In this document: positions 17,806 through 25,744 of the stretch, piece after piece
Layout of the letters: every line of letters starts with the position of its first letter
Numbering within the stretch: position 1 is the stretch's first letter
Source of the DNA: Sedimenticola sp.
Lineage (GTDB): Bacteria; Pseudomonadota; Gammaproteobacteria; Chromatiales; Chromatiaceae
NCBI GenBank assembly: GCA_002869585.1
Contig: PKUO01000045.1
Coordinates: 124,001 to 188,000, forward strand
DNA length: 64,000 nt
Direction of reading: 5' to 3'
The notes under the pieces: generated by a model
Seen by the model: the letters and a program-made list of their open reading frames with translations, nothing else
Databases searched by the model: none
Told to the model about the DNA's origin: nothing
Made by a program: the position numbers and the translations under genes

Positions 17806-18134
17806 TTTAAACATCCTTAATTGCGAGACATTCAGCCGCTATCGGGTACCTGCTAAAGCGACAACATGCTGAAAATAAATAGGTTTAATCGTTATTATTC
17901 AGTACAACCGCGCAGTGTTTCAATTGATTCGGATTGATGCTGCAGAATCGGCAACAACCGGCGCCAGCGTAGCGTCAGGGAAAAGCATCCCGGAAAGGCA
18001 ACTGTCCGTACAGTTTGTACTAGCAAAATCCCGAGCGAACGCTATGTAACCTTTTAATTCTAGCTCAAATTCAGGCTTTAGGGCATGTTCGGGCTGTAAC
18101 TTCCCGCTTGGGTTTTTATATGACTTGATCAGGC
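17806..18134. other. Non-coding stretch upstream of ppk
   Basis: No credible gene was seen on either strand. A possible ppk promoter on the minus strand is TTGAAA (17918-17923) and AATAAT (17894-17899) with an 18-base spacer; it is weak. The small inverted repeat ACTGTCCGTACAGT is at about 18001-18014. I did not find a convincing Pho box. Confidence 0.5.
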
Positions 18135-18164
18135 AAAAAAAAACCTGGCAGTAGGTGCCAGGTT
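18135..18164 (-). terminator. Strong intrinsic terminator of the candidate sRNA
   Basis: On the minus strand AACCTGGCA and TGCCAGGTT pair perfectly around the five-base loop CCTAC and are followed directly by nine T. This is a textbook rho-independent terminator. It lies about 260 bases past dapE and is best explained as the end of the small transcript beginning near 18307. Confidence 0.88.
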
Positions 18165-18307
18165 AAATATATAAAACCACCAAAGGAGGATGGAGGAGAT
18201 AAAAGAAACGATGCGACTCAACACTACTGCGATACTGCCTTTGGCTAAGCCGCATCGTTCTTTTAAGCGATCACTACAACAACACCGCTAGGGCATTAAT
18301 GATCGTT
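18135..18307 (-). ncRNA. Candidate small regulatory RNA, about 173 nt
   Basis: A promoter-like pair (-35 TTGACA, -10 TATTCT) and a strong terminator bound this stretch on the minus strand, with no protein gene between them. The RNA would form a long hairpin: the arm at 18251-18264 (minus strand AAAAGAACGATGCG) pairs with the arm at 18201-18215 (CGCATCGTTTCTTTT) with one bulged base and a loop of about 35 bases. After the hairpin comes the C-rich single-stranded stretch CTCCTCCATCCTCC (18185-18198), which is complementary to Shine-Dalgarno sequences, and then the terminator. That layout fits a trans-acting sRNA that blocks translation starts. It is not 6S, tmRNA, RNase P or 4.5S RNA as far as I can recognise. 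Confidence 0.6.
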
Positions 18308-18313
18308 AAAATA

Positions 18314-18343
18314 AGAATACACTAATATATTAAAGTCTGTCAA
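18314..18343 (-). promoter_or_regulatory. Sigma70-type promoter of the candidate sRNA
   Basis: The minus strand carries a consensus -35 TTGACA (18338-18343) and -10 TATTCT (18314-18319, four of six consensus bases) with an 18-base spacer. The expected start point is near 18307. It lies 77 bases beyond the dapE stop. Confidence 0.65.
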
Positions 18344-25596: not shown

Positions 25597-25744
25597 CCCG
25601 GAATCGCAAACGATCCGTGGAGATTGCCAGATATGGCGGTCATATACTACACACACGCACCGGCACGACTGTTGGGGTGCCTGGGAAACCGGGTCGACAG
25701 TTGGGGTTCGTGGAGGACTAACCCGTACAATTCGGAGTACACTA
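25597..25744 (+). promoter_or_regulatory. rpsB 5' leader, probable S2 autoregulatory element
   Basis: The leader can fold into CGACTGT (25666-25672) with ACAGTTG (25697-25703), enclosing CCTGG-GAAA-CCGGG (25680-25693, a GNRA-type tetraloop stem). A second stem pairs GGGTT (25704-25708) with AACCC (25720-25724) and shows GGAGG in its loop. The latter GGAGG is too far from the start to be the ribosome site, which is GGAG at 25733-25736. Known gammaproteobacterial rpsB leaders bind S2 to repress rpsB and tsf; this is a probable example. Confidence 0.6.

What the first reader, a model, noticed from the sequence alone, without database searches (positions are those of the whole stretch)
18135..18307. 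Candidate small RNA with anti-Shine-Dalgarno stretch downstream of dapE
On the minus strand a -35 TTGACA, 18 bases, and -10 TATTCT lead into about 173 bases without a gene, ending in a perfect terminator (nine-base stem, nine T). The RNA can form a long hairpin (18201-18215 with 18251-18264). It then exposes CTCCTCCATCCTCC, complementary to ribosome binding sites, ahead of the terminator. This is the standard layout of a translation-blocking sRNA. I recognise no known family.
Basis: partly seen in the sequence, partly recalled or inferred. Interest (0 to 1): 0.75.

Follow-up and report, generated by a model that had tools for sequence, protein, structure and literature searches.

The report
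S17-like anti-Shine-Dalgarno small RNA
Between dapE and ppk this sulfur-bacterium relative carries a small regulatory RNA whose near-invariant 22-base core mimics the ribosome's mRNA-binding tail; it is a gammaproteobacterial cousin of the Burkholderia/Bordetella 'toxic small RNA' (S17) family, fused to an extra hairpin with a conserved loop of unknown role.

Summary
In detail: minus-strand promoter, gene-free ~173 nt, intrinsic terminator, a very stable fold (z = -6.5), and a C-rich anti-Shine-Dalgarno stretch. It is conserved. The core CTCCTCCATCCTCCTTTGGTGG (18198-18177), normally followed by a terminator, occurs with at most 1 mismatch in 68 of 369 sampled Gammaproteobacteria (reversed-pattern control 0), often behind a shared promoter TTGACA-N11-ATATTAGAAAAT. 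'No known family' does not hold: the 3' half is a divergent relative of Rfam RF02278 (Betaproteobacteria toxic small RNA; B. cenocepacia ncS27/bdhR1, B. pertussis S17). The window copy scores 33 bits against a cut-off of 50, but intermediate sequences bridge the gap, and a model built from gamma members finds RF02278 members. The long hairpin is real: 11 of 14 pairs change on both sides in relatives, 0 of 500 shuffles. It carries a nearly invariant 21-nt loop shared with a second paralogous sRNA found beside DAHP-synthase genes. That paralog, not the window copy, has an FNR-like operator exactly 23 nt upstream of its -10 box. Most likely mechanism, inferred: Hfq-assisted blocking of ribosome-binding sites, after cleavage in the U-rich linker as in S17. 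New variant of a known kind; expression and targets untested.

The parts
18314..18343 (-). sigma70-type promoter: TTGACA (18343-18338), family element ATATTAG (18328-18322), TATTCT (18319-18314)
   Evidence: for hexamers; of 91 unique family members, 71 have TTGAC upstream and 36 of those have ATATTAG/ATATAAG, 30 at offset 17, 5 at 18 and one at 15
18135..18307 (-). predicted primary transcript, about 173 nt
   Evidence: promoter to end of T tract; fold z = -6.5
18296..18309 (-). TTAACGATCATTAA: possible remnant of the FNR-like operator TTGNNAATTNTCAA seen in most relatives; no -10-like hexamer 23 nt downstream here
   Evidence: operator and 23-nt spacing present in relatives, absent in the window copy; remnant status is inference
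18268..18305 (-). 5' hairpin 1
   Evidence: a similar hairpin can be drawn only in the same-genus copy L007
18200..18265 (-). long hairpin 2
   Evidence: inner 14 pairs 96.8% paired over 11 relatives, 11 of 14 pairs with changes on both sides, 0 of 500 shuffles
18223..18243 (-). near-invariant 21-nt apical loop CAAAGGCAGTATCGCAGTAGT
   Evidence: 89% mean identity in the loop against 38-43% in the stem arms, 24 distinct sequences of paralog types A and B
18199..18204 (-). U-rich linker before the core, candidate RNase E cleavage site by analogy with S17
   Evidence: at the foot of hairpin 2, unpaired or near-unpaired; processing is inference from PMC11722255
18177..18198 (-). core CTCCTCCATCCTCCTTTGGTGG: two anti-Shine-Dalgarno stretches, short hairpin with loop UCCUCCUU
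18135..18164 (-). intrinsic terminator and U tail
   Evidence: terminator helix covaries across the family, all 9 pairs with changes on both sides

Best explanation
The locus encodes a trans-acting, probably Hfq-dependent small RNA of the S17 / ncS27 (RF02278-like) kind. SHOWN by sequence comparison: a conserved transcription unit with a near-invariant 22-nt core followed by an intrinsic terminator, preceded in this subfamily by a covarying long hairpin with a near-invariant loop. INFERRED: the ~173-nt primary transcript is cleaved in the U-rich linker before the core to give a ~65-nt stable form; its CUCCUCC end and UCCUCCUU loop, which resemble the 16S rRNA 3' tail, pair with purine-rich ribosome-binding sites and block translation of many mRNAs, probably in carbon or transport metabolism as in Burkholderia and Bordetella. 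The upstream hairpin is a second module whose loop binds an unknown partner or restrains the core in the uncut RNA.
For: Fold z = -6.5. Core with at most 1 mismatch in 68 of 369 class genomes, 0 with the reversed pattern. 68 of 71 core-matched members have a T tract downstream; terminator covaries. Shared promoter TTGACA-N11-ATATTAGAAAAT. Hairpin covariation. RF02278 covariance model finds 47 of 85 relatives at E <= 0.01, none over its cut-off. The gamma-built model R1 finds f108 and f189 sequences that are over the RF02278 cut-off. L242 has gamma core and ATATTAG promoter yet scores 65.6 bits, over the RF02278 cut-off of 50. Hfq gene present in the same genome. Direct repression of BP2158, Hfq dependence and RNase E processing shown for S17 (PMC11722255); growth attenuation and RBS-centred predicted targets for ncS27 (PMC5688073).
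Against: No transcript data. The window copy fails the RF02278 gathering score (33.2 against 50). No convincing extended target in the host genome: sites within 3 mismatches of the core complement number 23 outside the sRNA genes against 11 for the reversed pattern, and few lie at start codons. Core hairpin pairs are too invariant for covariation to test. Processing site not observed.
Confidence: 0.78

Rival explanations
1. The RNA is mainly a lock-and-release regulator: in the full-length form the loop (GCCAAAGG) pairs with the core (CCUUUGGU), hiding the anti-Shine-Dalgarno loop, and cleavage or a signal frees it.
For: The duplex is stronger than the core hairpin: -12.9 against -5.2 kcal/mol for the window copy. 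In Bordetella, over-expressed S17L had no effect on BP2642A and mmsB (PMC11722255).
Against: No covariation: a loop does not pair clearly better with its own core than with other sequences' cores (mean -13.0 against -12.4). Pairing is lost in L027 and weak in L189. The loop is conserved well beyond the pairing segment.
Confidence: 0.2
2. The element is only the 3' UTR and terminator of dapE, or a read-through terminator region before ppk; the C-rich stretch has no regulatory role.
For: It lies downstream of dapE on the same strand and upstream of ppk.
Against: It has its own promoter of a family-specific type. The core and terminator occur at unlinked loci in many genomes, including C8 of the same genome. 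The hairpin covaries.
Confidence: 0.05
3. The conserved core is a sponge or 16S-tail mimic that binds ribosomes, another sRNA or a ribosomal protein rather than mRNA ribosome-binding sites.
For: The UCCUCCUU loop resembles the 16S 3' tail (established knowledge); near-invariance across many families is more than an ordinary seed usually shows.
Against: The Betaproteobacterial relative S17 acts on an mRNA ribosome-binding region, and ncS27's predicted sites centre there (PMC11722255, PMC5688073).
Confidence: 0.08
4. The transcript codes for a small peptide (30-31 aa frames at 18163-18255 and 18129-18224).
For: Open frames exist; S17L has a putative 32-aa frame overlapping the core (PMC11722255).
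Against: The 30-aa frame is broken in the closest relative (L007: ATG directly followed by TAG). Conservation follows base pairing and is nucleotide-level in the core.
Confidence: 0.03

Closest known systems
Betaproteobacteria toxic small RNA, Rfam RF02278 (B. cenocepacia ncS03, ncS05, ncS27/bdhR1, ncS62)
   Same: C-rich 5' end and first hairpin followed directly by the terminator hairpin; several unlinked copies per genome; homologous by bridging sequence L242 and by reciprocal model hits.
   Different: Window copy scores 33.2 bits against a cut-off of 50; different core spelling; carries a long 5' hairpin with a conserved loop; found in Gammaproteobacteria of the Chromatiaceae/Sedimenticola kind.
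Bordetella pertussis S17 (S17L about 190 nt, RNase E-processed to S17S 67 nt)
   Same: Long primary transcript ending in a conserved C/U-rich core plus terminator; 27-nt core reported 100% conserved within Betaproteobacteria (PMC11722255).
   Different: S17 sequence itself was not available for alignment here; the 5' hairpin-with-loop module is not described for S17 in the passages read; S17 is Bvg-controlled.
anti-hemB, Rfam RF02837
   Same: UCCUCC stretch plus terminator; 33.9 bits over the same bases.
   Different: Below the 49.5-bit cut-off; upstream structure differs; fewer relatives match it.
Neisseria NmsRA/NmsRB (RcoF) sibling sRNAs
   Same: Two anti-Shine-Dalgarno stretches, repress metabolic mRNAs, toxic or growth-slowing in E. 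coli (PMC5362039).
   Different: Not shown homologous; tandem pair in Neisseria.
FnrS (E. coli), named from memory
   Same: An FNR-type regulator probably switches on the paralogous (type B) sRNAs.
   Different: Regulatory parallel only; the window copy itself lacks an intact site.

Membership tests
RF02278 Betaproteobacteria toxic small RNA | covariance-model score at or above the gathering score (50 bits) | tested here: not met
   window 33.2 bits; no genome among 85 relatives over cut-off
RF02278 Betaproteobacteria toxic small RNA | common ancestry with the family (bridging sequences, reciprocal model hits) | tested here: met
   L242 (gamma core and promoter) 65.6 bits to RF02278 and 61.9 bits to R1; R1 finds f108 and f189 members
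RF02278 Betaproteobacteria toxic small RNA | double hairpin: C-rich hairpin directly followed by intrinsic terminator | tested here: met
RF02278 Betaproteobacteria toxic small RNA | growth inhibition when over-expressed | not testable with these tools
   experimental
S17 (B. pertussis) | RNase E processing of a long form to a ~67-nt form | not testable with these tools
   a U-rich linker lies at the equivalent place
S17 (B. pertussis) | Hfq dependence | tested here: inconclusive
   Hfq gene present; binding not testable
RF02837 anti-hemB | gathering score 49.5 bits | tested here: not met
   33.9 bits
RF00444 PrrF | gathering score 90 bits | tested here: not met
   21.6 bits; the model R1 does weakly hit genuine PrrF genes, through a short UCUCC stretch and terminator
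NmsR/RcoF | two unpaired anti-Shine-Dalgarno stretches | tested here: inconclusive
   one in a loop, the other partly in a weak stem; homology not tested

The most novel reading that the evidence does not exclude
A composite sRNA class of Chromatiaceae/Sedimenticola-type bacteria: two paralogs per genome (type A after dapE, type B beside DAHP-synthase genes) pair an S17-like ribosome-binding-site blocker with a second module, a rigid covarying stem displaying a near-invariant 21-nt loop that recognises an unknown partner; most copies sit behind an FNR-type anaerobic operator, so the pair would link anaerobic respiration to broad translational repression.
Probability: 0.45. Interest if true: 0.68.

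Novelty: new variant of a known kind. Interest (0 to 1): 0.55.

Why it matters
The RF02278/S17 family is described for Betaproteobacteria in the papers read here. These data extend its kind to many gammaproteobacterial families with a 22-nt core that barely changes, which suggests an old and general post-transcriptional regulator missing from Rfam in this class. The hairpin with an invariant loop offers a clear second question: what binds a 21-nt loop kept unchanged while the stem beneath it turns over completely? The FNR-like operator in the paralogs makes the physiological signal directly testable.

Tried and rejected
Rfam at gathering score (only t44 elsewhere in the window). tRNA (none). 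Peptide coding (frame not conserved). Carriage by viruses: core absent from viral contigs; no plasmid match. Near-perfect targets of the core in the host genome: mostly within ORFs; the best-placed are an accC-like and a fadJ-like start region (L167, L173; gene names from my reading of the N-termini), weak evidence. Exact-pattern scan of named genomes for the loop: mostly unrelated hits, with Ca. Sedimenticola endophacoides the informative one. Loop outside the family: the three best hits inspected (L268, L273, L275) have no core or terminator, and the rest were not inspected. Intramolecular loop-core pairing: energetically good, no covariation. Covariation of the core hairpin: untestable because it is nearly invariant; L027, L208 and L228 keep a hairpin in another spelling or register, which is only anecdotal support.

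Full report
OBSERVATION. On the minus strand, TTGACA (18343-18338), an 18-base spacer and TATTCT (18319-18314) precede a gene-free stretch that ends in a 9-pair terminator stem and a T tract. The promoter match alone is within chance for a 2.5-kb stretch. The predicted RNA folds far better than shuffles (z = -6.5), with hairpin 1 (18305-18268), long hairpin 2 (18265-18200), a weak core hairpin (18196-18177) and the terminator (18164-18142). The flanking genes are dapE and polyphosphate kinase 1.

FAMILY. A search of the same and related genomes showed that bases 18198-18173 are almost perfectly conserved in most genera of the family, often at more than one place per genome. The core CTCCTCCATCCTCCTTTGGTGG with at most one mismatch occurs in 68 of 369 class genomes, never in the reversed-pattern control. 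Members are followed by an intrinsic terminator whose nine pairs all covary, and many share TTGACA-N11-ATATTAGAAAAT. Some genomes carry two or three copies in tandem (L119, L120, L136). The host genome holds at least two strong core members: the window copy (74.5 bits) and C8:22189-22247 (68.6 bits).

RELATION TO KNOWN RNAs. At relaxed thresholds the window matches RF02837 (33.9 bits) and RF02278 (33.2 bits), both under their cut-offs. RF02278 finds 47 of 85 relatives, none over cut-off, and 36 of 350 class genomes at E <= 1e-5, two of them over cut-off. A model built here from gamma members (R1) finds those two over-cut-off members (L204, L205) and other f108 and f189 genomes; several of these score 65-73 bits to RF02278. 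L242 links the two groups: gamma-like core, ATATTAG promoter, and 65.6 bits to RF02278. I therefore treat the window RNA as a divergent homologue but not a formal member. R1 also weakly hits genuine PrrF genes, which I read as a shared short UCUCC stretch plus terminator.

THE EXTRA MODULE. In the Chromatiaceae-like family, two long paralogs share hairpin 2. That family label rests on one genome, G016, whose contig C59 has the same length and match position as a Ca. Sedimenticola endophacoides record. Type A (window) has the full core and lies after dapE in three genomes checked, with ppk on the other side in two and ppk also near a fourth copy (L008). Type B has a shortened CUCCUCC core and lies after a gene whose C-terminus reads as a class II DAHP synthase, often facing one that reads as class I DAHP synthase (gene names from my reading of the sequences). 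The stem turns over (38-43% identity between sequences) while the 21-nt loop stays at 89%. For type A, 96.8% of stem cells are paired against 32-42% when the partner is slid, with 11 of 14 pairs changed on both sides and 0 of 500 shuffles as good. The loop's role is unknown. It can pair with the core more strongly than the core hairpin does, but without covariation.

CONTROL. All 13 type B copies and 8 of 12 type A copies carry TTGNNAATTNNCAA or a close variant, 23 nt upstream of the position expected for a -10 hexamer. That is the geometry of a class II CRP/FNR-activated promoter (established knowledge). Copies of this operator elsewhere in the host genome lie upstream of an octaheme tetrathionate-reductase-family cytochrome and between two multiheme cytochrome genes, among others, which fits an anaerobic regulon but is inference. 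The window copy, L007, L054 and L064 lack it; the window instead has the TTGACA/ATATTAG promoter and only a degenerate palindrome at 18309-18296.

MECHANISM. For Bordetella S17, RNase E processing, Hfq dependence and direct repression of BP2158 have been shown (PMC11722255). For ncS27, over-expression attenuated growth and predicted interactions centre on ribosome-binding sites (PMC5688073). Hfq is encoded in the host genome. By homology I infer that this RNA blocks ribosome-binding sites through CUCCUCC and the UCCUCCUU loop. Targets in this organism are not established: complementarity searches gave few start-codon-proximal sites.

LIMITS. 

Noticed in passing
25632-25722 (+): t44 RNA (RF00127) above gathering score, 70.2 bits.
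   Followed up: no
L017:2724-3039: Group I intron hit (RF00028, 86.5 bits) in a relative's locus about 1.2 kb from an sRNA copy.
   Followed up: no
L120, L119, L136: Two or three tandem copies of the core sRNA, each followed by its own terminator-like hairpin.
   Followed up: no
promoters of family members, e.g. L013, L020, L112: ATATTAG sits in the promoter spacer just before the -10-like GAAAAT at a fixed distance from TTGACA; an unidentified regulator or unusual promoter recognition may explain it.
   Followed up: partly
host genome C8:22189-22247 (+) (L002, L235): Short-form paralog of the sRNA in the same genome, with the consensus core and promoter-like element.
   Followed up: partly
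host genome C87:16644-16800 (L003, L266): Type B paralog with TTGCGAATTCGCAATGC operator; own-genome copies of a similar operator also precede multiheme cytochrome genes.
   Followed up: partly
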